In this document: positions 12,544-63,671 of the stretch, piece by piece | Layout: each line of letters begins with the position of its first letter | How positions within the stretch are numbered: the first letter of the stretch is position 1 | DNA from: Thraustochytrium sp. TN22 | Taxonomy: Eukaryota > Sar > Bigyra > Thraustochytrida > Thraustochytriidae | Direction: 5' to 3' | Assembly: GCA_013306675.1 (NCBI GenBank) | Contig: JABLUY010000067.1 | Span: 85,779-149,778 of the forward strand | Length of the DNA: 64,000 bases | Position numbers and translations under genes: made by a program | Notes under the pieces: model-generated | What the model was told of the DNA's origin: nothing | What the model saw: only the letters and a program-made list of their open reading frames with translations | Database searches by the model: none

Positions 12544-13139
12544 TCATTTGACGGAGGCGAAATAGGTTCTCTGCGGAGGCGCGAGCGGGGATAGGTCGAT
12601 GATATCGCGGGGCTCAAAGTTGAACAGGTCGTCCGCAGAGCGATTTTGCTTCCGCAGCGAGTCCAGTGCGGCCTGCGAAACGTGTACGCGGCCGGCCTTG
12701 CTCTTGCTCTCCATCATCTGTGCGAGAGCAACACTGTCACCAAAGATGTGGTAGCGCGGGTCCTTGAAGCCTACGACACCAGCGATGGCACTGCCTGCGT
12801 GGATACCGATGCGGATCTGAATGTCGGGCTCCTCGATCTCCTCGGCCAAGTACATTTCACTCTGCTCGCGGAGCAAGGCAAATTCTTCCTCGCTCTTGGC
12901 CTGAAGCGTGGACCGTGGGGCATCGCTGGGCTTACCGCCGAGTGTAATACGCACGTTGAGTCCGCGTCGAGATCCGATGCGGGCCACAGACGGCGTAGTG
13001 GTCACCACATCTAAGGTGTCCTGGCTGTCGCCGGCCTCCGCGGAGATGCTGTGGGGCTGCCAAGACGGCGGGTCTGCCTTTTCATCCTTGGTCTCCTGCT
13101 CGCTGACTTCCTCGATGGCGAGCTGAGGCGTCGACGCCG

Positions 13140-13176
<37 letters not shown>

Positions 13177-16100
13177 CTGCTCTTGCTGCTCTTGCTGCTC
13201 TTGCTGCTGCTGCTCTTGCTGCTGACTGGCTCGCGAGGCGCGGTCCATCTCAAATGAGTTGTTCGTGATCGAAAGGAGACGGCGCTCACGCATTAAGGCC
13301 CGACGCTTCTCCTCGTTTTCGCGGAGCAAAATCTTGTGCGCAACCTGGCGTAGCTCCGTGATGGAGTTCATCATTTCGATGGCGGCACGCATGGTCCTCT
13401 CCGTGTGGTCGCTGGAGAGCTCCGGGCAACCGCCCACAACGAAGTAGGCGTCGCCGATGATCTCAACCTTGTACAAGCCATACTTCTCACTGATGGCGTC
13501 GAAACGCATGTACATGGCATTGAGGAAATCCATGAGCGAAAGCGGCGAGATGCTGCTGGAGAATTTGGTGAAGCCCACCATGTCGGTGAAGAGGATGGTC
13601 ACATTCTCGAAGTTGTCCACGATGCGCGCGTGGTCGCCCTCCATGAGCACTGGTACAATGCTGGGCGGCAGCAGCTGCTGCATGAGCGCTGTCTTTTGCT
13701 CCTTTTGGATTTGCAACTTCTCGCCCTGGTCGAGGATGAGGCGGCTCTGGCAAAAGTCCTTGAAGAGGAAGTGGTCCTGCACAGCCACGCACCAAGTCTG
13801 GAGCAGCGCGGTCATGAGAAGGTAGCCCTCGTGCACCAATATGTCCTCCAGCGTCAGTTTGTTCTCCATGACGTCGACCGTGCGCATCATGTATCTGTAG
13901 TAGGTCTTCTCATTGGCCAACATCTGGTAAAGGAGCAACGCCTGCGCCATGACGGACACGAGGAGCGACAGTAAGACGCGGTGCCGCATGGGGATGATTT
14001 GCTGGTTGATGAAGATTGTGATGACCACCATGAGGAAAGAAGCGTTGGGGTGTTTCATGAGCACATTGAGCGCGATCGTGCATGCCACGCCAGTCATGAA
14101 GCCCAGCTCGACAATCACGAAAACGTAGGCTCGCCAGCGTCGGTATCGTACCATTGCCTGCACGAGCGCACTCATCCCCATGAGGCCCAGGGTACCGCTA
14201 ATCAGCATCAGGTACTGTGAGTCAGTGAAGGCAGAACCTTGCGCGGCACCATCGCCAGCCCGCGCGCTGAGCGTCAGATAGAGCCCGAGCTCGATGATGA
14301 GCGCAACCGGCAGGCAGACCAGAAGGAAGCTGGAGAAGCGCCGGATGTTGACTCGCCCACGGCGCTGCTGCACCTCTTGAAACTCGGGCGATCCCAGAGA
14401 AAGGGCCAACCACAAGGCGCCAAGGATGGTGGCCCGGTCGAACCTGTTGCCCTCGAAAATGCTGCCATGCTTAGAGTCCAGCACGGGTAGTGTGCCGTCC
14501 GCCCGTGCGCGGATGTAGGTCCGCAGGCGCTCCTCCTCGCGCTCAAGCGTTGTGGAACGGTCCTTACTCGCCGAGGAGTAAAAGGTCTGGGCCGAGTTGT
14601 TGTCATCCTTTGGTGTGGCGAGGATTGATGACTCCGACGAGTTTTTGGGCTCCGGCACGGGTGCCACCTTGGAACGCCGCGTGGACCCAGGCAGGTTGGA
14701 GAAGCCGCTCACGGACCAGGTGTTGAATAAGGAGTTGTGATTGGACGCGATGTGCTCAAGCATTTGCGAGCGATCCTTGATGAGGGCGTTCTGGCCCTTG
14801 CGGTCGAGCGTGTCCTTGCGCCCCGTCAAGAAATAGGTCTCCATGTTGCCCTTGCCCTTGACAGAGATCGTGCCTCGGGGCTCGAGCACGAACTTCTTTG
14901 CCAGCATCGCGTATGTGGAGGGCGAGACCTGGATCCTTCCCTCCGGACAGGTCGACTCCATGCGCGAGGCGGTGTTGACCGGGTCGCCAAAGAGCTTGAA
15001 ACGCGGGCTCTTCTGGCCCACCACGCCTGCGACGATCGCCCCAGAGTTGAGGCCGATACGGATTTGCACGTCCTGCCCTAGCGTCGGCACGGTCTGGCGC
15101 AGCAGGCGGTTGATTTCCGGCATGATCGTGATGAACTCCAGCGCGAGCTCCGCCACGTCCTCGGCATGGCGCCTGCTGCGCTGCGGGCAGCCACCCACCA
15201 CCATGTACACCTCGGCGATGGTCTCCACCTTGTACACGTCGTAGTCCTCGAGAATCGAGTCGAAGACTGAGAAGATGGTGTTGAGGATGTCAACCAGCTC
15301 CTCGCGCGACTGATGCGCGGAGATGCTGCTGAACTTGCACACCTCGACGAACATGACTGTGACGGACGCGAACTTCTCGGCGATGCGAACGGGCGCTTCC
15401 GCATCGCTGCGGTCCTGCAGCGCCTCCGAGATTACGTCCGGGAGCATGCTGCGCAGCAGGTCCCGCGTCTTCTTTGTCTCCTTTTCCACCTCGCGCGTCT
15501 GTTCCAGCAGCAGGTGCTGGCTGATGATGGACCGCCGCAGATTGAGCTCGCGGTGGAAGGAGACGTACATGAGGAAGAAAAATGCACAAGCTGTCGTCCC
15601 GCTCATGATGAACACCGTCTGCTGGGTCAGGTTCGCGTCGTTCGCTTGGGTCGCCGCCCGATTTGACATGAATGCAAAGACTATGTAGAGGCTAATCGTG
15701 AGCCCGGCGATGAGCGAGGCGTTTCGCATCGTCAGCGGCGTGCTGGTGAAGAGAACGATGCAGAAGAGCACCGGATTCATGTTGCTGTAGTTGTCTGAGT
15801 CCAGCTTGTCCATCACGAGCGCCAACCCGACGCCAAGGAAAAGCACACCAGAGATCACCTGCGCGTAGTTGAGAAAGAACCTTGACGTGATCAACACGAA
15901 GGCCAGCGGCAGAGACACTGTGCCGATGCCGAAGATGAGGCGCTCCCACGCGTCTGGTGTGTAAAACGTGTAAAATAGTGCCACCAGGAAGGTGCTCATG
16001 CAGAGAAGCTTGAGCAGCGGCCGGTAGCGCAGCGCATTGAGTTGCCGAAACTCGGTCTCCAATATCTCACAGGCCAGCTTGTCGCCCTCGTACCTGAGCC

Positions 16101-16251
16101 ACGGCTGCGCGACCTTGACCTGTGTCACGTGCTTGCACAGATACCGCAAGCGCCGTCGACGCTCCGCCGCGGTCCGCTTGCGCACCGCGAGCACATGTTT
16201 GGCGAAGCGCGCGCGCAGCCTCAGCCCTGCGGGCGAGTCTGACGACGCCAT
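12544..16251 (-). CDS. Two-domain transmembrane class III nucleotide cyclase
   Basis: A 1,235-residue protein with the layout 6TM-cyclase-6TM-cyclase, intronless. Each hydrophobic module (about residues 75-240 and 640-820) precedes a class III catalytic domain. In the first domain both metal Asp positions are Glu (FVEV, residue 303; AEVY, residue 347), but the transition-state Asn and Arg are present (NTASR, 426 and 430). In the second the metal Asp residues are present (FTDM, 890; GDAY, 934), while Asn/Arg are Ala1175 and Met1179. One composite active site at the domain interface is therefore expected. Both domains carry the KVE glutamate typical of GTP-using cyclases. The partner purine residue is Lys or His. 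A polyQ insert lies in domain two. The product (cGMP or cAMP) is uncertain. Confidence 0.92.
13141..13224. repeat. CAG/CTG trinucleotide tract coding polyglutamine
   Basis: Ten uninterrupted CTG units on this strand, then interrupted CTCTTGCTG blocks. On the minus strand it encodes Gln runs with occasional Glu, inserted inside the second cyclase domain (residues about 1010-1037) between the metal-binding and transition-state halves. Confidence 0.95.
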
Positions 16252-17126
16252 ACCGCCCCACCGCCTCGCGCCAGAAGCGCACGAGCGCGAGCGCGCGCGA
16301 GGCCGCCGCTGCCTCGCTACTCCGCCCAATGATTCTGGAGCGCATACGGCAAGATGAGCGAGCAAGCACCGCACCACGCAAGCTGCCAGCTTGCTCCGCG
16401 CAAGGCCCGAACCTCAGGCCTCGCTTGCCACAGTAGGTCGTCGCCAACGCACCTCTGGAGAGAAAAAAACGAGGGAAAGAAACTTACGAAAGCCACCGGC
16501 TACGTCACAGCGGCACTCAGGCTGCACCCACTCGGCGGTGCCGGTTCCGTTCCGAAGTTTCAGGCTTGAAACGGCTCGGACTGGGCGACCTCATTCCATC
16601 AAACAACAACGCATTCGGATCACCGTGATCCAGCCACTGGATGCCATGGCACACAGTCGGCGTCACCGATTGCTTAGACCTCGGAAGCTCAAATAACGAA
16701 AGCCGGGCGCGACGCGAGACGCGACCCGACTCAAGTGGTGGGGCGGTAAAGCGAACCGCAAGGTGTGTGCGCGGACCCTTTTTTAAACTGTGGTGATGCA
16801 CGCGGCCGGGACGCCGGCGGACGCCGCGCCGCGGCGGCGGGGGCGCACAGCCGCGCACTGCACTGCGGTGCAGCTCAGGCCCTTACAGAGTCACAGTCAG
16901 CGTACGATTGTGTGGAGCGTTACCATTTGGAGGCTTGCTCGGTTCTGTTTCTTGTCGGATTTGAGCACTTCGGAAAGCCGGAAGAGCGTGCTCCTTTCCT
17001 GCCTTGGCTTCATTTCATGCTCCTTCCTGGCGTTGCATGCAGGCCTAATTAGCTAGCTGGCTAGCTAGCTAGTAGCTACTTGAGCTCGAGGCTCTCTCAC
17101 CGGCAATTTGGGAGTCAGCTTAATCG
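16252..17126. other. Spacer between cyclase start and PDCD2-like stop
   Basis: About 875 bp. The cyclase promoter should lie at its left end. Near 17048-17077 there is a GCTAGCTGGCTAGCTAGCTA tract of the kind seen in other spacers. No gene was recognised. Confidence 0.5.
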
Positions 17127-32562: not shown

Positions 32563-34713
32563 ATGAGGATGGGCCTGCCGTGCGGCCAGCACGGGGACGC
32601 GGCGAACGGGACGGGCAGCAGACTGCCCGAGAGAGACTCGCTCGCGTTTGCGGCGGTGCTGACGATCGGCGTGCTGGTCACGGTGCTGGTCATTGTGGTG
32701 CAGGATGTAGGGGTGGGCGCGAGCATTCGGACGACGCGCTGTGAATGCAGCGAGACAGGGCCGGCGGGGGCACCCACTGCGCTCGTGTGCAGCCCGTGCG
32801 GAACCTTCCCGCTGTTCGAGGAGAGATTCGCCGCGCTTGAGTCGCTGTACGTGTGCAGGACGCTGTGATGAATGACGACGAGAGAAAGCTGCACGCTCAC
32901 ATGAGGCGCTGCACAGCTTCGTCCGCGGCGCCGGGTCCACGAGCATCTTCGTGGCGCCGGCCTCGCTCCCTCTCTTCACCTCGCTCAGCAGCTTCACGAT
33001 GCTCTCACACTCGCAGCTGCGCTCGCTTCCCGAAGGGCTCGGCGCCCTCACCGGGCTGACCTCCTTGTATGTTCCTGCTTCCTTGGGACAGCATGCGGAA
33101 GACACTCAGCTGACGCGCGTACATGCAGAGTCCTGGAGGGCCTCGGGCTCACGGAGCTTCCTGAGAGCATCGGGGCGCTCTCCAACCTGACCTTGCTGTA
33201 CGTCCTTGGCAAGCGTCTGTGCGTACGTGCGCCAAGCCTAACAGTGCGCTCGCTCCAATCAATGCGAAACCAGCTCCCTCACCCGCAATAAGCTCAGCTT
33301 GTTGCCCACCTCCATCACCAGTCTAACCAGGGTCTCTGAGCTGTACGTGCAATCCGCAACCTGACGCCCTACGGATTGCAGCGCCTTGTCGAGCTGACCG
33401 GATCCACAACGAAACCCCTAACGCAGCTGGGCCCCAGAAAACCAGCTTGCGCTAATTCCGGCCGCCATCGGGGGGATGTCGAGTCTGACCATGCTGTACG
33501 TGCGGCGCGTGTTGGTCCTACAGGTGGGACCTGACGGCACGATCTTCATTTGCAAAGCGAGGCGTATTGACCCATCCTCACCTCCAATCGCGCAGCCAGC
33601 TCTATGGGAACTCACTCAGCGAGCTGCCAGAGAGCATAAGCGAGCTGGGGCGCCTGAAATTACTGTACGAGCTCGCGATGCGCCGATCCGGCGCGAGCCC
33701 CAGCACTGACGCATGAGGCACGCAGAAACGTCTTTGAAAACCATCTGACAGCGCTGCCCGAGGGCATTCAAGGCCTGACCAGCCTTGAGCAGCTGTGAGT
33801 CACGCCGAGCGCGTGGGAACCCTGACAATTTTGTGGAGACTGACGCGCCCGGCAACCTGCGTGTGAAGCGGTGTGTATGATAATCGCCTTTCATCGCTTC
33901 CCACTGGCATCTCCGGGCTCGTGAATCTCCCCAATCTGTATGTAACGGTCTCCTTCAGTGCGCGCGAGCCGGCATACTGACGCACCTGTCCAACTCCGCC
34001 CGCCGGCGAAGCGCGCTCGGATCCAATCGATTGACTTCGCTACCCAGGAGCATCGGTGACCTGAGCCAGCTGAAGACCTTGTATGTCCCAGGGCCTGCGA
34101 AGATCGAAGAGTCACCACTGACAAGCGCTTGCTGACCAGGTTGTGCACGGAGAACCTTCTTACCGGGCTCCCAGAAGAGATCGGCCAGCTGGCCCAGCTC
34201 AAAGAACTGTACGTACTAAGTTAGGGATGCAAAGAGGATCCTGCAGTCGACTCACGCATGCGCAGCTACCTCGGAACGAACCTGCTCTCTTCGCTCCCTG
34301 ATTCAATCGGTCAACTGGGCCGCCTCGACACCCTCTCAATCGACGACAACCCAAGCTTGGCGTCGCTGCCACTCACTATGACAAACCTGACCTCGCTCAG
34401 GTCGCTCTACACGAGGGATCTCACCCTTTGCGGCGACCAGCCGAACATGGACCTCCTCGACCTTCCTTACGAGCACCCTGATAGAAATTGGTCGGCAATC
34501 GGGGACACGGCGTGTCCAGCCTCGACACGCAACATTACCATGGACTCACTGTCGAGCGCAGCAGCGGCACATGGCGCGCCCTCGATCGCCCTCGTGGCTG
34601 CAGCCGCCGTCATCTCATCGTGCCTCGTCGTGCTCCGGAGGCCGGCCCCACCAGCGGACGAGCCAGACTCGTCGCAGGTTACGGATTTGGATGCCAGTGG
34701 CCCAGAGCCGTAA
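32563..34713 (+). CDS. Eleven-exon transmembrane leucine-rich-repeat protein
   Basis: Exons: 32563-32846, 32917-33066, 33129-33197, 33274-33342, 33427-33495, 33596-33664, 33726-33794, 33869-33937, 34012-34080, 34140-34208, 34266-34713. The spliced protein has 477 residues. Exon 1 gives a hydrophobic N-terminal segment (FAAVLTIGVLVTVLVIVV) and a Cys-rich CECS...CSPCG cap. Each later exon is one or two LRRs of 23 residues with the pattern N-x-L-x-x-L-P-x-x-I-x-x-L. Exon 11 adds the last repeats, a Cys-containing C-cap and a C-terminal membrane helix (IALVAAAAVISSCLVVL). All introns are phase 2, cutting the Leu codon CT|N, with GTACGT, GTATGT or GTGAGT donors in most. Likely a surface or endomembrane recognition protein; the ligand is unknown. 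No kinase or TIR domain. Confidence 0.88.
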
Positions 34714-35300: not shown

Positions 35301-35375
35301 GCTGGCTATCCTGCCGTTGTCCTCCTACTTGGAGTGGGCAGGTATGAGAGTCTCGGGTGATCGAGATTTGCTTAG

Positions 35376-35416
35376 CGAGCGAGCGAGCGAGCGAGCGAGC
35401 GAGCGAGCGAGCGAGC
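35376..35416. repeat. (GAGC)n microsatellite
   Basis: Ten copies of GAGC, upstream of the small secreted protein gene. Nearly the same tetranucleotide recurs near 43318, 38750 and 63720. Confidence 0.97.
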
Positions 35417-36595: not shown

Positions 36596-38719
36596 TCAAG
36601 GCACGGACGTACTTGTTGTGGGGTCCGCGATCTCCAGTGCGTCCAGGCGGGCGAGCCCACAAATGAGGCCGGTTGCCGGGTCGCGGACAAAGCAGTCGCC
36701 CCGGAGCGTGAGCTCGCCGCGATCCGCACTGTCGAGTGCGAGAAGGTCGCTGACAACGCGCTGAGAGCCTAGATACGGATGCGCGACGCACGCATCGCGA
36801 AAGTCATGGCCGAGGGACACGCACAGGGTCCCGTTGACCCGGAGCGCGTGGCCAGCATCCAAGACGACGTTGAAGACGGCGTCGACCTGGTCGCCGCGCT
36901 CCAGGACGGCACTCGGCAGTTCGCATGGAAAGGCCCAGGCGCCGTCCACGTGCACGGGGTGGTACGGCGTGAGCAGGAGGTCACCGGGGAGGCGCACGAG
37001 CGGGTCGCAGGCGGTGAGCTTGTCGAGCTGGAAGCGCACGAGCAGGCGCACGGTGGCAGGACGGCCGCCCCAGGACTGCACGCGGTCGCCGCGACGCAGC
37101 CGGTCGATGCGCTTGGAGGTACCGTCCGCCATGGTGACGAGGCAGTGGGGCGCGAAGCAGCCGCGCGAGCGGTTGTTGTACATGTGGCGCATCTTGGCGG
37201 CGGAGATGGGCGCCGCGGAGGGCCGGCGCGAGGGCTTGGGGGGCGGGACGGCGTCAAAGGCGGCCTCGGCCGCGTCGCGGAGGCCAAGGAAGCAAGGCCC
37301 GCGCGCGTATGCTTGCACGCCCGGGTCTTTGAAGTTGTTGCATCGCTGGAGTGCGTGCGCGGCGAGCAGCGAGCGCATGTAGTGGCGGCCCCAGCGCTGG
37401 AAGGCGTTCGCCGAGCCGACGCCCTCGGCTACCTGGCCCTCGAGGTCGGCGAGCAGCGCCTCGGCCTGCTTGAGGGCCGGGCCCGACTCGAGGCGCGAAA
37501 GGGCGTCGCGCATGGCTGCCGCGGTCGCCTGGACGCGGGCGGTGAGCACGTTCTCCTGGAAGATCCCAGCGGCCAGCTCTTCGAGGACGACGGCCAGCGA
37601 GTAGCGCAGCGCCGCGACTGTAGCCATCGCGTCGCGGTCCGGGGTGGCCGTCACGGCCCGCGCGTCGGCGTGTAGGCGCTCCGGACCGCTGGATGGCCGC
37701 CAGAAGAGACCGATGGCTTCGACCGAGGCGCCTCCAGACAGGCGAACCAGCACGGAGCGCGGCTGCGAGAACTGCAACGGGCCGACCTTGACGAGAACGC
37801 CCCAATCTGCGGTCTCCACACCGTACTGCGCTTGAAGTGCTTCCTCACAAGACGCCTCGAGGCAGGCTCCCTCGGGCAGCTCCAAGGCGAGCTGCGCGTC
37901 CATGGCGCAGGTGGCGAAGGCGTTGGCGCACGCGTGGATGAACACCGTGCCAACCAGTCCGGCATCCGGGATGAAGGCGTAGGCACCAGCACATGTGCGC
38001 GCGATGTTTTGCAACAGCTTACTGTCCATCTGGTAGCCAAATCCGAAGGTGTACACGGAGCAGGGGAGCTGACCCGCAGATTCCAGGTAACGTAAGAGCG
38101 TGGGCATGTGGCCACGTGGCGGCTCGACGTTGGGCATGCCGTCCGTGAACAAGAAGATGCCGCCCATGACGCCGGCGGCACCGTCCGGGCTGCGGCAGAT
38201 GAGGTCCAGACCCTCCTTGAGGCCGCCCCAAAGGTTGGTGGTGGACCCCGGGCGGAGGCGGTCCACGCGGTCTTTGAGCGCCGCCTTGCCAGCCGCGTTG
38301 CAGCGCACGCGCTCGCAGACCACTTCAGCTCGGCTGTCAAAGGTGACGAGCGACATGAAGTCGTTCTCGCCCGCCGCGCCCAGCACCGTGAGAATCGAGT
38401 GCTTGACCACGTCCAGCACGGAGAGCCCGCTGGATTCGGACGAGCCGTCGGCGTCCTTGACACTGGCATCCGTGCCCATGGACCCGCTCACGTCGATCAC
38501 ACAGCAGGTGTGCTGCGGTAGCGGCCTCGCCGGCATGTCTGGCGGAACAAGCGTGACCAGGGTGCCGTCCTCCACCTCGCAGCGCTCCACGTGCACCTCT
38601 CCCACCTTGGCCGGCGCCGCGGGCGGCCCAAGCTCAGCCCGCGCCGTCACGGGCTGCGCCACGGGTACGCTCTCTTGTTTGGACTCGCGGGTCCCGCCTC
38701 TCATCCAGCTCGAGAGCAT
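36596..38719 (-). CDS. VWA-Hint (Vwaint/Vint) protein
   Basis: A 707-residue protein. A von Willebrand A domain begins near residue 70 with the metal site DVSGSMG (Asp76, Ser78, Ser80), followed by FLFTDGMPN and GFGYQMDSKLLQNIA. A helical Vwaint-type region follows (about 300-500). The C-terminal 185 residues form a Hint domain: it starts with Cys521 in GCFAPHCLVTMADG, carries RLRRGDRVQSW, the TPYHPVHVDG block and a LGHDF stretch. Hint domains of inteins and hedgehog use the first Cys for acyl shift and self-cleavage. Whether this one is active is inference. No signal peptide, so it is probably cytosolic. The frame is open upstream to 39052, but that part is Ser/Arg repeat translation. Confidence 0.88.
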   Translation of the reverse strand: MLSSWMRGGTRESKQESVPVAQPVTARAELGPPAAPAKVGEVHVERCEVEDGTLVTLVPPDMPARPLPQHTCCVIDVSGSMGTDASVKDADGSSESSGLSVLDVVKHSILTVLGAAGENDFMSLVTFDSRAEVVCERVRCNAAGKAALKDRVDRLRPGSTTNLWGGLKEGLDLICRSPDGAAGVMGGIFLFTDGMPNVEPPRGHMPTLLRYLESAGQLPCSVYTFGFGYQMDSKLLQNIARTCAGAYAFIPDAGLVGTVFIHACANAFATCAMDAQLALELPEGACLEASCEEALQAQYGVETADWGVLVKVGPLQFSQPRSVLVRLSGGASVEAIGLFWRPSSGPERLHADARAVTATPDRDAMATVAALRYSLAVVLEELAAGIFQENVLTARVQATAAAMRDALSRLESGPALKQAEALLADLEGQVAEGVGSANAFQRWGRHYMRSLLAAHALQRCNNFKDPGVQAYARGPCFLGLRDAAEAAFDAVPPPKPSRRPSAAPISAAKMRHMYNNRSRGCFAPHCLVTMADGTSKRIDRLRRGDRVQSWGGRPATVRLLVRFQLDKLTACDPLVRLPGDLLLTPYHPVHVDGAWAFPCELPSAVLERGDQVDAVFNVVLDAGHALRVNGTLCVSLGHDFRDACVAHPYLGSQRVVSDLLALDSADRGELTLRGDCFVRDPATGLICGLARLDALEIADPTTSTSVP

Positions 38720-39953
38720 TTTTCTCGCGAGCGAGCCGCGCGAGCGAGTCGTGCGAGCGCGACTCGTGCGGGCAACTTGTGCGAGCGACTCGTGCGAGCG
38801 ACTCGTGCGTGCGAGCGAGCTGGTGCAAGCTATTCGGAGCGCACGTTGCGGGTTTGCTGCTCCCCCGCGACCCGATCGGTCTCCGAGTCGACCTTCCCAG
38901 CGTGTGCAGATTGCGCAGGCTCTCGCGTTTCGAGATCTGCCTGGCCGTACTGCACTGCACTCTCCTGTCCTGGCACGCTCTTCGCTGCACTCGCGGCAGC
39001 CTGCGAAGTGCCTCCTCAGCTCAGGCTGGGCCGAGTCCGCCTTGACGCGCACGCCGGGCCGCCCCGGCCGCCCTCACTGTGGCACTGCAGGCCTCAGCTG
39101 CGTCTCGCCAGACTCGGACGCCGGCCGCGCGCAGGACCCAGGACCCGGACTCGCTCGCTGGCGCGGGGCTGGCGACGCCGCTGCCGCCGCCGGGCCGCCC
39201 CTCCAGTGGCGCGCCGTCGGAGAGCGGCGCGGAGAGCGGCTGCGCGAGAGCGGCTGCCCGAGAGCGGGCGAGAGCGGGAGAGAGCGGCAGCGCGGGTGCA
39301 TGCGCACGTCCCGTGACCATGACCGGGGCCTTTGCGTGCGCTCTGTACCGTGCGCAGGACGTGCTCGGCTCGGCGCAGGACGGGCCGACGACGCGGAGGC
39401 GGAGATGGCGCAGATGACGGAGCGCAGTTGCGGAACGTGCAGCGGCGCGGCGAGGGGGACAATGCAGCGCAGATGAGAGGAACAGGGCGCAAAAGACTCG
39501 GACGCGGCGCGCCGCACGATGGGAACGACCTCAGGCTGAGCACTGGCACGCGGTCAAGAACGACAATGCGCGCTCCGGCGCGCTCCGGCGCGCTCCGGCG
39601 CGCTCCGGCGCGCTCCGGCGCTTCGAAGTTCCTTCGGAGGCCTTCGGAGTCTCGAACTCGAAAGCGGCCGGCCACCGCCGAACCCGCGGTTGATAGTGGC
39701 GTCTACGAGCTGGCGGATCATAGCTTTCCGGGCCCGGCCGCCACTGCACGGTGATGCCACCTGGCTGGCCACTCATCTCTGCTTGCGCGAGAGTGTCGGA
39801 GGTTCGACGGCAGCCAGCCCGGATCGACAACGCTGAAGCTGACGCACAGACCGCTGCCACGAAGAACTCGACGCGGCCACATGGCCAGGCAAGCGACCCG
39901 AGCGACGGACGACGGCAGAACCGCAAAGTCCTCTGAGTCAATAGGAAAGCAAG
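38720..39953. other. Divergent spacer rich in tandem repeats
   Basis: About 1.2 kb between the VWA-Hint and lipase genes. It holds a run of GCGAGCGACTCGTGC units (about 38731-38815), GAGAGCGGC repeats near 39220-39290, and the 10-bp array at 39571-39620. Open frames here are Arg/Ser repeat translations. Confidence 0.5.
39571..39620. repeat. Five copies of a 10-bp unit
   Basis: CGCTCCGGCG repeated five times without a mismatch, immediately preceded by CAATG and followed by CTTCGAAG. It lies about 330 bp upstream of the lipase start. Confidence 0.97.
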
Positions 39954-60359: not shown

Positions 60360-61847
60360 GTGCTTCACTCCTCTGCGCTGCGCGACCTGCTTGCTCATAT
60401 ATACCTTACACATAACATAAGACCTTTTGCCTGCACGCGATCCCCGACTGGTCAAGCGAGTCGATCGACAACTTTTAAGTTGAGCCCCAGGCAGCAAAGC
60501 GCGGGAGGCGGGCGAGGCCTCGTTCTTGCTAAGACTTGCTTGTTGCCCGGGACTGTGAGCCTCCCCACAACTGGTCGGCCTTGCAGCCATGGACGTGCCG
60601 CGCTTGTACCTTGGCCTTGGCAGGCAAACGAGGTCTCAAGGCGCACCTCTGCACGCGTCGCACTCTTTTTGGCTTCGTGCCTGCTCGATCGGATGCCGTT
60701 GCAAGCACCTCTGGCATCGTCGCGACATGGACCATCTCCGGCTGTCAAGCCTGCGTTGGCCGTCCTGCCAAAGCCGGCCAGCCAGCCACGGCGCTCTGGC
60801 AGGCCCACGCCCGCCAGCCGCCCGGGCCCAGCCGCGCCCTACCACTAGGCCTGGGCCTACTACTAGGCTAAGTCAATTGATGTCATTTAACTTACTACCG
60901 CGGCGTACCGCGCCCCGGCGGCCAGGCCTTCCGGGCCCTACCGGTCAAGTGTACGGATGTCGATCAGAAAGCGAACCAGCGTCGCACACCGTGTCCGCGC
61001 CGCGCGAGCGCCCGGCATGCACGGGCCGGCGCCGCTGCGCGCCCCGGCCGGCTCGACTCAAAGCCCGGCGGCACGAGCCTCGCCCCCGCGCGTCCGCCGC
61101 CGCCCTCCCCGCCCGCCGCGCCTTCGCCCGCGGCGCGCAGCCGCCGCCGCCGCCCCGGCCCGTCCAGAACCCTGGCCGCGCGTCCGCAACCATTCCGGAC
61201 GCGCGGCGCCGCGACGCGTCCCATCCCGAGGATATCCTCTCCTCCGCCGCATTGACCGTTGGCGGCGGCTCCCCAGTGGGGCCTGGGGGGGGCGCGGCTT
61301 TTTCCCCGGCGCTGGCCCGCGCGGGCCCCCTGCGGCGGCGCCCAGTGGCGCGCGGGGGCGGCGCCGGAAGCGTGGCGGGGCGCTGGGGGGGCGCCCACTG
61401 GCGGACCCGCCCCCGCGGCGCGCGCAGAGCGCGGCGGGGGCCGGCGCGCGAACGTTAGGCGCGCGGCGCCCGCAGCGAGCGCGCGGGCGGAGACGAGAGA
61501 GAGAGAGAGCAGATAGAGAGGAGAGGAGGCCCAACGACCGCCGCGCGTCCCACGCACTCACTCACTCCCGCTTCGACTCCGCGCGCAGCCAACGCCAGGG
61601 CGCGGCGGCGCTCGGCCGCCAGCAGTCGGCATCGCGCGCGCGCGCGGTCGTGCGGGCCGGCGCGGCGCGGCGCGGCGCGGCGCGGTTGGGGGCTCGAGCG
61701 AGGATCCGAGCGAAGAGGCAGGCAGGCATCCATTCATCGATCCGGCGATCCCTCCCTCTCGTCGCGCCGGCAGCGGCGGCGGGGCGCTCGCGGCGGCGGC
61801 GCGGCGAGGCGAGGCAGAGCGGGGCGGAGCGGAGCGGAGCGCGGAGC
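60360..61847. other. Spacer and probable promoter of the Ig-domain gene
   Basis: About 1.5 kb. The left end is A/T-richer. The right end contains (GAGA)n near 61493-61515, GGCGCGGCGCGGCGCGGCGC near 61661-61684, then GGCAGGCAGGCATCCATTCA near 61719-61740, about 110 bp before the start codon. An open plus frame through the whole right half lacks acidic residues and family likeness and is not supported. Confidence 0.5.
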
Positions 61848-63671
61848 ATGCCCACGCGCGTGCTGGTGGCACAGCAGACGCACTGCAGGGAGGAAGGGGA
61901 GGAGCGGCAGCAGACGTTGACGCGGCAGCAGCAGCAGCAGCAGCAGCAGCTGCTGCAGAACTCGACGGAGGCGGCGCAGGAGCAGTCAGGGCTGCTGCAG
62001 CAGCGGCAGCGGCTGGAACAGCAGCAGGAGGAGAAGGAGGCGCAGCAGGGCGGCCTGCGCGCAGCACCGCGCAAGACCATGCCGCTCGGCGAGCTGGGCC
62101 TGAACGGCAACCACGTGAACAACGGTAGCGGCAGCAATGGCGGCGCCGTGCTGCGCGCCGCCGGCAGCAGCGGCAACGACGAGAACGTTCGCGACGAGAA
62201 CTCGAACCTGAACGTGGAAAACAAGGCCCGCCAGGCGAACGGCCGGGCGAGCGGGGCCTTGAGCAGCGCGGAGTTCAAGGCGCGCAAGGCAGCCGCGCTC
62301 GCGGCGCGGCGCGAGGCTGAGGGCAAGGCGAAGCAGCAGCAGCAGCGGCTGCTGCAGAAGCAGAAGGAGCAGCAGGAGGAGGAGAAGCAGCACGGCGTCG
62401 CATTAGATGAGGCGCGTGCCGACCTGGCGCCGCCGCCACCTGGGCCCGCGCAAACCCTCCCGAGGCACACAAAGAAGAAGTCGTCCAAGCTGCACAGCAA
62501 CGGCGCGGAGCGCGACATGGGTGTCGCGGGCCGTCAAGGCGTCCACGCCGCTGCCAAGGCCGAGGCCGAGGCTGAGGATGCTTCGACGACCACAACTAGC
62601 ACCAGCAGTCCCAGCAGCACCAGTAAAAGCGAGCCGAGTGGTACCGGGGTGCGCACGCTCGCGCTGCTCGTGGCAGCTGTCTGCGGCGCGCTCGCCGCAG
62701 CCGCCGCCACGGGCGTCTACCTCGCGAACGCCGGACCTGCGCCCGTAGCGCCCATTGTCTCCAGCAAGCCCTTCTTCCACGCTGTGAGTGCCGGCGAGTC
62801 CTTTGCCTTCGAGCTCGACGCCCAGGGTGGGCCGGCGCCACGCTTCCAATGGCGGCTCAACGGCGTCGACGTGGCTGGTGCCACCGACAAGGTGCTCCGT
62901 GTGGAGAGCGCCTCGGCGCGAGACAGCGGCACGTACTCTTGTGTCGTCGAGAACGAGGCCGGCAGGCTCGTCTGGGAGGAGGGCTACCTCAACGTTCTGG
63001 AGGGCGAGGAAACTCGGGCCTCGGACGCCGCCGCGGGGCCGGCGCGCCTTCCTTCGAAGGACACCGCTTCCGCTTCCGCTTCCGCCGTTGCCCGGTCCTC
63101 GCCCTCGCTCTCGGGCTCGCTCGCCAACGCCGAGCCCCCGCTCGCGCTCGCGCCGTCGCTGCTAGAGCTCGAGGAACAGGCCAAGCGTGGCGACTCCAAG
63201 CGGGTGCGCTCGGCGCGCACCTGCCTTCTCCGCCACGCCCCGGACCCCGTCATGCGCGCCGCCACCGTTGACGGCGGCGCTGCCGTTGTCGCGGCCGGCG
63301 ATCTCACTGGCTTCCTCGACTGCTTCCCGGCGCTCAAGGAGATGCTGCGTCAGGCTTCTGCCGGCGACGCTGCCCTGGCACGCCGCCAGACGCAGGCGCT
63401 CGATGTGCTGCGCTCCTTGCACGGCACCTCCAAGAAGCGCTCGCTCCTTGTCAATGTCCTGGCCGCGCTCGATGACCTCGCGCAGGCCCGCATCGATGCT
63501 CAACGCGATGCGGGCCTGCTTCGCTACCTCGACGACCTCGTGGCACGCGTCGCATTCCAGGCCGGCCTCTATTGTGCCTCCACGCCGCGTTGCGCCGCGC
63601 CCTCGGACCGTGCCGTCTCGGACGCTCGCCAAACCTTTGCACGCATGGTTCTCGGTGCCTTTGGCGCCTAA
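61848..63671 (+). CDS. Single-pass membrane protein with Ig-like domain
   Basis: A 607-residue protein of unknown function. The N-terminal 265 residues are Gln/Glu/Ala/Lys low-complexity with a polyQ run and coiled-coil character (EFKARKAAALAARREAEGKA). A hydrophobic helix follows (TLALLVAAVCGALAAAAATG, about 269-290). Residues of about 308-385 form an immunoglobulin-like domain: FQWRLNGVDV and DSGTYSCVVENEAG, with the tryptophan and F-strand Cys present but no Cys at the usual B-strand position. A Ser/Ala linker leads to a helical C-terminal region (about 430-607) with CLLRHAP and LLRYLDDLVARVAF. Orientation is not determinable. Frame is open upstream to 60957 but in GC-rich spacer. Confidence 0.82.
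   Translation: MPTRVLVAQQTHCREEGEERQQTLTRQQQQQQQQLLQNSTEAAQEQSGLLQQRQRLEQQQEEKEAQQGGLRAAPRKTMPLGELGLNGNHVNNGSGSNGGAVLRAAGSSGNDENVRDENSNLNVENKARQANGRASGALSSAEFKARKAAALAARREAEGKAKQQQQRLLQKQKEQQEEEKQHGVALDEARADLAPPPPGPAQTLPRHTKKKSSKLHSNGAERDMGVAGRQGVHAAAKAEAEAEDASTTTTSTSSPSSTSKSEPSGTGVRTLALLVAAVCGALAAAAATGVYLANAGPAPVAPIVSSKPFFHAVSAGESFAFELDAQGGPAPRFQWRLNGVDVAGATDKVLRVESASARDSGTYSCVVENEAGRLVWEEGYLNVLEGEETRASDAAAGPARLPSKDTASASASAVARSSPSLSGSLANAEPPLALAPSLLELEEQAKRGDSKRVRSARTCLLRHAPDPVMRAATVDGGAAVVAAGDLTGFLDCFPALKEMLRQASAGDAALARRQTQALDVLRSLHGTSKKRSLLVNVLAALDDLAQARIDAQRDAGLLRYLDDLVARVAFQAGLYCASTPRCAAPSDRAVSDARQTFARMVLGAFGA

What the first reader, a model, noticed from the sequence alone, without database searches (positions are those of the whole stretch)
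32563..34713. LRR gene built from eight consecutive 69-nt symmetric exons
Exons 3 to 10 are each exactly 69 nt and each encodes one 23-residue LRR. All ten introns (57-100 nt) are phase 2 and cut the same Leu codon. Most of the rest of the window is intronless, so the gene stands out. Such one-repeat-one-exon modules can be gained or lost without breaking the frame, which suits a rapidly diversifying recognition receptor. Plant and animal LRR genes with 72-nt phase-2 exons are a known parallel. Here the unit is 23 residues, not 24.
Basis: partly seen in the sequence, partly recalled or inferred. Interest (0 to 1): 0.78.

Follow-up and report, generated by a model that had tools for sequence, protein, structure and literature searches.

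The report
Protist LRR gene, one repeat per exon
A protist gene for a likely cell-surface binding protein stores most of its repeats in separate, equal-sized exons, and it belongs to a group of such genes whose repeat blocks look interchangeable, an arrangement already known from plants, animals, brown algae and ciliates.

Summary
The gene at 32563-34713 has 11 exons; exons 3-10 are each exactly 69 nt and each encodes one 23-residue LRR. All ten introns (57-100 nt) are GT-AG, phase 2 and split a Leu codon. All ten carry a CTNAC branch-site-like motif, against a mean of 1.5 after shuffling. The product is 477 aa: N-terminal hydrophobic segment, Cys N-cap, LRRs, C-cap, C-terminal hydrophobic segment. 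It is not a lone oddity. The same genome, most likely a thraustochytrid (inferred), holds at least 15 genes with such exons: 79 tabulated, 74 of them exactly 69 nt. Fifteen loci share the C-cap. In two close paralogs the flanks are 97.5% and 87% identical, but the LRR block between them has been replaced. One of those blocks varies mainly at concave-face codons. The best reading is a modular cell-surface recognition or adhesion family built from exchangeable LRR cassettes. One-LRR-per-exon phase-2 organisation is already published for rice, brown algae and Tetrahymena, and modular LRR exons for human genes; here it is a new family in another lineage. No transcript or function was tested.

The parts
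32563..34713 (+). LRR transmembrane-protein gene, 11 exons, 477 aa
   Evidence: Spliced reading frame without stops; Pfam LRR_14 3.7e-31, LRR_8 1.6e-19
32563..32846 (+). Exon 1: N-terminal hydrophobic segment and Cys N-cap
32641..32700 (+). Hydrophobic stretch (signal peptide or signal anchor)
   Evidence: Read by eye from the translation; C409a, C409b and C177 have a hydrophobic start at the same place
32740..32808 (+). Cys-rich N-cap, CxC...CxxCxTFP
   Evidence: Similar in C177, C409a, C409b and, by eye, C241 and C403
32847..32916 (+). Intron 1, 70 nt, phase 2
   Evidence: GTACGT...ACAG, CTNAC 21 nt from the 3' end
32917..33066 (+). Exon 2, 150 nt, about two repeats
   Evidence: Most upstream acceptor that gives an open frame; shorter alternatives at 32944, 32989 and 32992 are also open
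33067..33128 (+). Intron 2, 62 nt
33129..33197 (+). Exon 3, 69 nt, one LRR
33198..33273 (+). Intron 3, 76 nt
33274..33342 (+). Exon 4, 69 nt, one LRR
33343..33426 (+). Intron 4, 84 nt
33427..33495 (+). Exon 5, 69 nt, one LRR
33496..33595 (+). Intron 5, 100 nt
33596..33664 (+). Exon 6, 69 nt, one LRR
33665..33725 (+). Intron 6, 61 nt
33726..33794 (+). Exon 7, 69 nt, one LRR
33795..33868 (+). Intron 7, 74 nt
33869..33937 (+). Exon 8, 69 nt, one LRR
33938..34011 (+). Intron 8, 74 nt
34012..34080 (+). Exon 9, 69 nt, one LRR
34081..34139 (+). Intron 9, 59 nt
34140..34208 (+). Exon 10, 69 nt, one LRR
34209..34265 (+). Intron 10, 57 nt
34266..34713 (+). Exon 11: two contiguous repeats, C-cap, hydrophobic (transmembrane) segment, short tail, stop
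   Evidence: C-cap similar to paralogs
34426..34492 (+). C-cap motif (G-QPNMD-L...PDRNW)
   Evidence: Related stretch found at 15 loci of this genome including this one
34573..34635 (+). C-terminal hydrophobic segment, taken as transmembrane
   Evidence: Read by eye from the translation; six paralog tails also read as one such segment plus a tail

Best explanation
The gene is a real, spliced protist gene for a cell-surface LRR protein. It belongs to a multigene family marked by a common C-cap in the last exon and, where the 5' part could be compared, by a common Cys N-cap exon. Between these lies a variable number of single-LRR exons. Shown by sequence: exon structure, phase, shared C-cap, differing array-exon numbers, and block replacement between two close paralogs. 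Inferred: one ancestral LRR exon with its intron was multiplied by duplication; because the array introns have the same phase and cut the same codon position (first Leu of xxLxLxx; in paralogs occasionally Ile, Met, Val, Phe or Cys), whole repeats can be added, dropped or exchanged in frame; introns were later lost at some junctions. The cut lies inside the concave beta-strand (recalled LRR geometry), so each junction joins exposed residues from two exons. Also inferred: the solenoid is outside the cell and binds ligands (microbes, food, partner cells or surfaces), and exon turnover varies the binding face.
For: Gene model and branch-site control. A scan free of phase and repeat register in 18 stretches, one strand each, gave 103 hits, 100 of them phase 2, 67 of those 69 nt; collapsed to 76 distinct donors, 67 have a 69-nt phase-2 reading and 74 read only in phase 2; the antisense strands give 0, except the C409 stretch, which has genes on both strands. 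79 tabulated array exons in 15 genes: 74 of 69 nt, 3 of 72, 2 of 66, all with AG/GT and no stops. Repeat-repeat junctions: 83 of 137 in 18 stretches hold an intron at the repeat boundary, 2 of 95 in 26 other LRR stretches (that script counts only phase-2 boundary introns, and several of the 18 were chosen because earlier searches pointed to such introns). CTNAC in 53 of 56 array introns, shuffled mean 8.4. Genome-wide pattern for LRR-exon ends: 61 matches against 10 for the reversed pattern. C-cap at 15 loci. C403 and C241: 97.5% identity over 1786 nt and 87% over 654 nt flanking unrelated LRR blocks. C403's eleven 69-nt repeats: 194 of 250 pairwise amino-acid differences fall on five concave-face codons, the best of 33,649 five-codon sets; pN/pS 1.41 there, 0.23 elsewhere. 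Entropy in 74 exons: mean 3.60 bits at those positions, 2.01 elsewhere.
Against: No transcript evidence. CTNAC is also common in these exons (52 of 79), so the motif is not specific to introns. The nearest neighbour of an exon lies in its own gene no more often than chance (6 of 42, expected 5.6), although mean similarity within genes is slightly higher (p 0.004 and 0.0065). Array order is not conserved between genes (2 of 55 pairs at p<=0.01, mean z 0.17). Array introns are not recognisably similar to each other, so they give no positive trace of unit duplication. The window gene has no close paralog and its own exons show no recent change. C403, where hypervariability is clearest, has no introns in that block, so that block grew by in-frame 69-nt tandem repeats, not exon duplication. 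Positions 6 and 19 of the repeat are nearly as variable as the concave ones (3.33 bits each), and variable concave positions are usual for LRRs. Only 5 of the other 14 C-cap loci were seen to have a matching N-cap, and 5 of the 15 array genes are not among the 15 C-cap loci.
Confidence: 0.62

Rival explanations
1. Parallel intron insertion: repeats first multiplied without introns (as in C403) and introns were later inserted independently at the same target of each repeat, as introner-like elements might do.
For: Intronless repeats of the same 69-nt length exist in C403; exons do not cluster strongly by gene; array introns show no common ancestry.
Against: The 38 array introns compared share only short matches, unlike recent introners (recalled). 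The same phase and codon position throughout is explained more simply by copying. In C241 against C403, block replacement explains the intron difference.
Confidence: 0.22
2. The proteins are structural or adhesive surface proteins, not recognition receptors; exon modularity only sets the length of the solenoid.
For: By eye, 9 of 14 paralog tails have a long PT-rich stalk, and six end in one hydrophobic segment plus a tail; the window protein matched only LRR families in Pfam.
Against: Replacement-rich variation on the concave face of C403 suggests selection on binding; C119a and C119b have tails that read as several membrane spans.
Confidence: 0.3
3. The arrays mainly serve regulated alternative splicing: skipping symmetric LRR exons makes isoforms with different binding faces from one gene, as reported for brown algal ROCO genes.
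For: The window's eight 69-nt exons, and the tabulated array exons, are phase 2-2 and skippable in frame; the precedent was read in passages of PMC11378527.
Against: No RNA evidence here; the ten introns are short with good splice signals, which suits constitutive splicing (inference).
Confidence: 0.2
4. Artefact or decayed gene.
For: None found beyond the absence of RNA data.
Against: 477-aa open frame, ten intact splice-site pairs with branch-like motifs, conserved C-cap.
Confidence: 0.03

Closest known systems
Rice and other plant LRR-kinase genes
   Same: Phase-2 introns split the first Leu (or residue at that place) of xxLxLxx, exons of one or more repeats (PMC3050792, passages)
   Different: There often 72-nt exons with a kinase domain; here 69 nt and no kinase found
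Brown algal ROCO genes
   Same: One LRR per exon, phase 2, proposed exon shuffling and immune role; also a stramenopile if the host is a thraustochytrid (PMC11378527, passages)
   Different: 72-bp exons, LRR-ROC-COR proteins; here 69 nt, hydrophobic ends, C-cap, no ROC domain found
[quoted passage not shown]
   Same: Tandem arrays of equal-length phase-2 LRR exons in a protist, variable exon number (PMC6564038, passages)
   Different: 90-bp exons, thousands of young genes often next to a retroelement; here 69 nt and diverged copies
Human LRR genes with modular exons
   Same: Frame-preserving LRR exons, one length peak at 69-75 bp (PMC6642158, passages)
   Different: Different protein families, caps and lineage
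Lamprey variable lymphocyte receptors (recalled, no call)
   Same: Capped ectodomain with a variable number of LRR modules and concave-face variability
   Different: VLRs are assembled somatically; here variation is between genes of one assembly and nothing somatic was tested

Membership tests
One-LRR-per-exon phase-2 array genes | At least three consecutive exons of equal length, one LRR each | tested here: met
   Eight exons of 69 nt
One-LRR-per-exon phase-2 array genes | Array introns phase 2 in the first Leu of xxLxLxx | tested here: met
   Ten of ten in the window gene
One-LRR-per-exon phase-2 array genes | Splicing supported by transcripts | not testable with these tools
   No RNA data held
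Brown algal LRR-ROC-COR (ROCO) | ROC domain after the LRRs | tested here: not met
   Only LRR families matched the 477-aa protein at E<=0.001
Brown algal LRR-ROC-COR (ROCO) | 72-bp LRR exons | tested here: not met
   69 nt
Plant LRR receptor kinases | Kinase domain | tested here: not met
Plant LRR receptor kinases | Intron splits first Leu of xxLxLxx, phase 2 | tested here: met
   compared with passages of PMC3050792
[quoted passage not shown]
   69 nt
Lamprey VLR | Somatic assembly from a germline gene and donor cassettes | not testable with these tools
   One assembly only
Thraustochytrid (host assignment) | Large PUFA-synthase subunit A gene | tested here: met
   PfaA family over cut-off in one 3044-aa frame; on the other strand close by, a 2083-aa frame with weaker matches to the same profile. 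That this marks thraustochytrids is recalled
Thraustochytrid (host assignment) | 18S rRNA sequence | not tested
   Five requests did not complete

The most novel reading that the evidence does not exclude
A single-celled protist carries a germline repertoire of capped surface LRR receptors, functionally like lamprey VLRs, in which in-frame single-repeat cassettes and tandem 69-nt units are exchanged between genes under diversifying selection on the binding face. It would serve recognition of microbes or of self.
Probability: 0.22. Interest if true: 0.8.

Novelty: new member of a known kind. Interest (0 to 1): 0.5.

Why it matters
The same intron placement (phase 2, first Leu of xxLxLxx) is stated for rice LRR-kinases (PMC3050792), and phase-2 LRR exons for brown algae and gonadotropin receptors (PMC11378527) and Tetrahymena (PMC6564038). 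Finding it in a surface LRR family of another protist makes a question testable: is this one ancient exon module or a repeated convergence driven by the LRR fold? The family is also compact enough to follow repeat-cassette turnover between strains.

Tried and rejected
Unit duplication visible in introns: no evidence, since the 38 array introns compared share only short matches. Conserved exon order between genes: not found (2 of 55 pairs at p<=0.01, C450-C186 and the neighbours C409c-C409d). ROCO or kinase identity: no such domain found. Domain search of the tails of C119a and C409d: nothing over a curated cut-off. Alternative acceptors for exons 2 and 11 were listed. C128: pattern matches, but no LRR unit found in the fetched stretch in the strand examined; counted as a miss, so 4 of the 5 stretches gave arrays. 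Rows left out of the table of 79: 60-nt exons in C177 and C185a and short exons in C241 and C55, seen by eye in translations, and multi-repeat exons. Gaps over 130 nt between listed exons were left out of the 56 introns. The repeat profile was built from 42 seed exons of 69 nt, which favours that length; the later scan without register or profile did not use it, but its stretches were the ones already chosen. The 26 comparison stretches were picked from loci in hand; 8 of them held fewer than two repeat units and gave no junction, and the C409:183-200 kb loci were not among them. The literature searches cover only the held library: 'thraustochytrid' and 'LRR' as whole words (singular only), 0 papers; 'labyrinthulomycete' and 'leucine-rich repeat', 1 paper, whose passage concerns Pfam counts; 'thraustochytrid', 'genome', 'intron', 'leucine-rich repeat', 0 papers; three broader searches seen as listings only. 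Zambounis et al. 2012 is not held and is known only through PMC11378527. No structure was predicted.

Full report
Observation. The complete model joins exons 32563-32846, 32917-33066, eight 69-mers and 34266-34713 into a 477-aa frame. All ten introns are GT-AG, 57-100 nt, phase 2, and the split codon is Leu in all ten. Nine of ten donors read GTRNGT (intron 6 is GTACGA), and all ten introns carry CTNAC 8-47 nt from the 3' end, against a mean of 1.5 in 2000 shuffles with a maximum of 6. Retention of any of them breaks the frame. The pattern is far above chance: 7 strict AG-69-GTRNGT open stretches in the gene region against a mean of 0.12 in 500 shuffles. Splicing itself was not observed.

Protein. 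At E<=0.001 Pfam finds only LRR families (LRR_14 3.7e-31, LRR_8 1.6e-19). The best solved-sequence matches are LRRD1, SHOC-2, LIC11098 and plant LRR receptor kinases, which reflects the repeat class. Read by eye, there is an N-terminal hydrophobic stretch (possibly a signal anchor, because 26 residues precede it), a Cys-rich N-cap, the repeats, a C-cap and a C-terminal hydrophobic stretch with a short tail. Topology was not computed.

Genome. The window lies in a 37.9-Mb, 453-contig genome. A PfaA-type polyunsaturated fatty acid synthase lies in one 3044-aa frame. With a genome size inside the 30-60 Mb given for thraustochytrids (PMC12258536, passages), this suggests a thraustochytrid; the hallmark status of that gene is recalled. 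Five requests for the 18S gene did not complete.

Related genes. A tblastn search with the spliced protein gave 121 matches at E<=10. A search with the C-cap of C403 gave 21 matches, of which the first 15 (E 3.4e-7 or better) are distinct C-cap loci including the window gene. Linking LRR units without assuming exon length showed boundary introns in most of the stretches examined. In one search, of 137 junctions in 18 stretches, 83 are phase-2 boundary introns, 26 contiguous, 11 short in-frame insertions and 17 gaps. In 26 other LRR stretches, of 95 junctions, 2 are such introns (both in C299), 54 contiguous, 2 insertions and 37 gaps. That script recognises an intron only at the boundary in phase 2, so it cannot by itself show that no others exist. 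Seven gap regions or long introns printed and four were looked at by eye: several hold an extra 60-, 66-, 69- or 72-nt exon, and I saw no clear intron at another place; the rest were not resolved.

Control for phase and register. A scan that accepts any phase, any length of 54-90 nt divisible by three and any rotation of the repeat gave 103 hits in the 18 stretches: 100 in phase 2 and 3 in phase 0; 67 of the 100 are 69 nt. By distinct donor there are 76, of which 67 have a 69-nt phase-2 reading and 74 read only in phase 2. The antisense strands give 16 hits, all in the C409 stretch that carries genes on both strands (15 and 1), and 0 elsewhere.

Tabulated exons. 79 array exons in 15 genes: 74 of 69 nt, 3 of 72, 2 of 66. 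Ten of these 15 genes are among the 15 C-cap loci; C10, C450, C11, C186 and C409e are not (C10 and C186 gave weak matches, 0.0098 and 0.033). C450 and C11 each carry eight tabulated 69-nt exons. CTNAC occurs in 53 of 56 array introns (shuffled mean 8.4), but also in 52 of 79 exons, where Leu-Thr codons can produce it, so it supports the introns without being specific. A genome-wide 35-place pattern for LRR-exon ends gave 61 matches, some of them clearly not LRR, against 10 for its reversed control. It found five of the window gene's junctions, so it undercounts.

Gene anatomy. Matching N-caps were seen in five of the other 14 C-cap loci (C177, C409a, C409b; C241 and C403 by eye); for the rest the 5' part was not compared or gave no match. 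C409a, C409d, C177, C185a and C185b have two linked units ahead of the array. Of 14 paralog tails printed, six run off the fetched stretch. By eye, six of the other eight (C51, C55, C409a, C409c, C409d, C185a) end in one hydrophobic segment plus a tail, and two (C119a, C119b) read as several membrane spans; nine of the 14 have a long PT-rich stalk. The window gene has no such stalk.

Turnover. C403 and C241 are recent paralogs: 97.5% identical over 1786 nt including the last repeats and C-cap, and 87% over 654 nt around the N-cap. Between these stretches their LRR blocks do not align beyond repeat-level similarity. C241 has two phase-2 introns there (read by eye); C403 has eleven intronless 69-nt repeats with a mean identity of 83%. 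In C403, 194 of 250 pairwise amino-acid differences fall at unit positions 1, 3, 4, 21 and 22, the concave-strand positions around the split Leu; no other five-codon set does as well. pN/pS is 1.41 there and 0.23 elsewhere. This is direct evidence of block replacement in the family and suggests selection on the binding face. It concerns a paralog, not the window gene, and the C403 block lacks introns. In the 74 exons of 69 nt the same five positions average 3.60 bits against 2.01 elsewhere, but positions 6 and 19 reach 3.33.

History. The eight exons of the window gene are on average 47% identical to each other. Across 42 exons of seven genes, nearest neighbours are in the same gene 6 times (expected 5.6), although mean similarity is slightly higher within genes (p 0.004 and 0.0065). 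Array order is not conserved. Introns are not similar. The arrays are therefore old or well mixed. Shared phase and codon position favour copying of an exon-intron unit over independent insertion, but this is inference.

Comparison. Passages of four papers show the kind is known: rice LRR-kinases with phase-2 introns in the first Leu of xxLxLxx (PMC3050792), brown algal ROCO genes with 72-bp phase-2 exons, which also cites gonadotropin receptors (PMC11378527), Tetrahymena 90-bp arrays (PMC6564038), and human LRR genes with modular exons including a 69-75 bp peak (PMC6642158). The gene works like these at the level of gene architecture. By the features tested it is not a ROCO gene, a plant receptor kinase or a Tetrahymena-type gene. 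Searches of the held library found no paper on LRR exon arrays in thraustochytrids (listings).

Verdict. I rate it a new member of a known kind, of moderate interest, with a bolder reading (a germline VLR-like surface repertoire) not excluded.

Noticed in passing
L037/L034 (G000 C403) against L038 (G000 C241): Recent paralogs with near-identical flanks but unrelated LRR blocks; C403 has eleven 69-nt intronless tandem repeats varying at concave-face codons.
   Followed up: yes
G000 C119, about 55.1-56.5 kb and 58.2-59.8 kb (L042, L056): Two related genes whose tails read as several membrane spans after the C-cap; a motif recalls XK-related proteins (recalled); no Pfam match for the one searched (C119a).
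   Followed up: partly
L069 (C177) and L082 (C185): 60-nt phase-2 exons encoding shorter LPxLPxxLxxL repeats (by eye), so other repeat lengths also seem to keep the one-repeat-one-exon rule.
   Followed up: partly
window 60957-63671 +: Long open frame with an Ig/I-set domain match (3.9e-9), unusual for a protist (recalled).
   Followed up: no
window 36596-39052 -: VWA plus Vint/Hint-type domain protein downstream of the LRR gene.
   Followed up: no
window 12544-16377 -: 1277-aa frame with three stretches matching the adenylate/guanylate cyclase catalytic domain.
   Followed up: no
window 35374-35416: AGCG tetranucleotide repeat, 10.8 copies, 3' of the gene.
   Followed up: no
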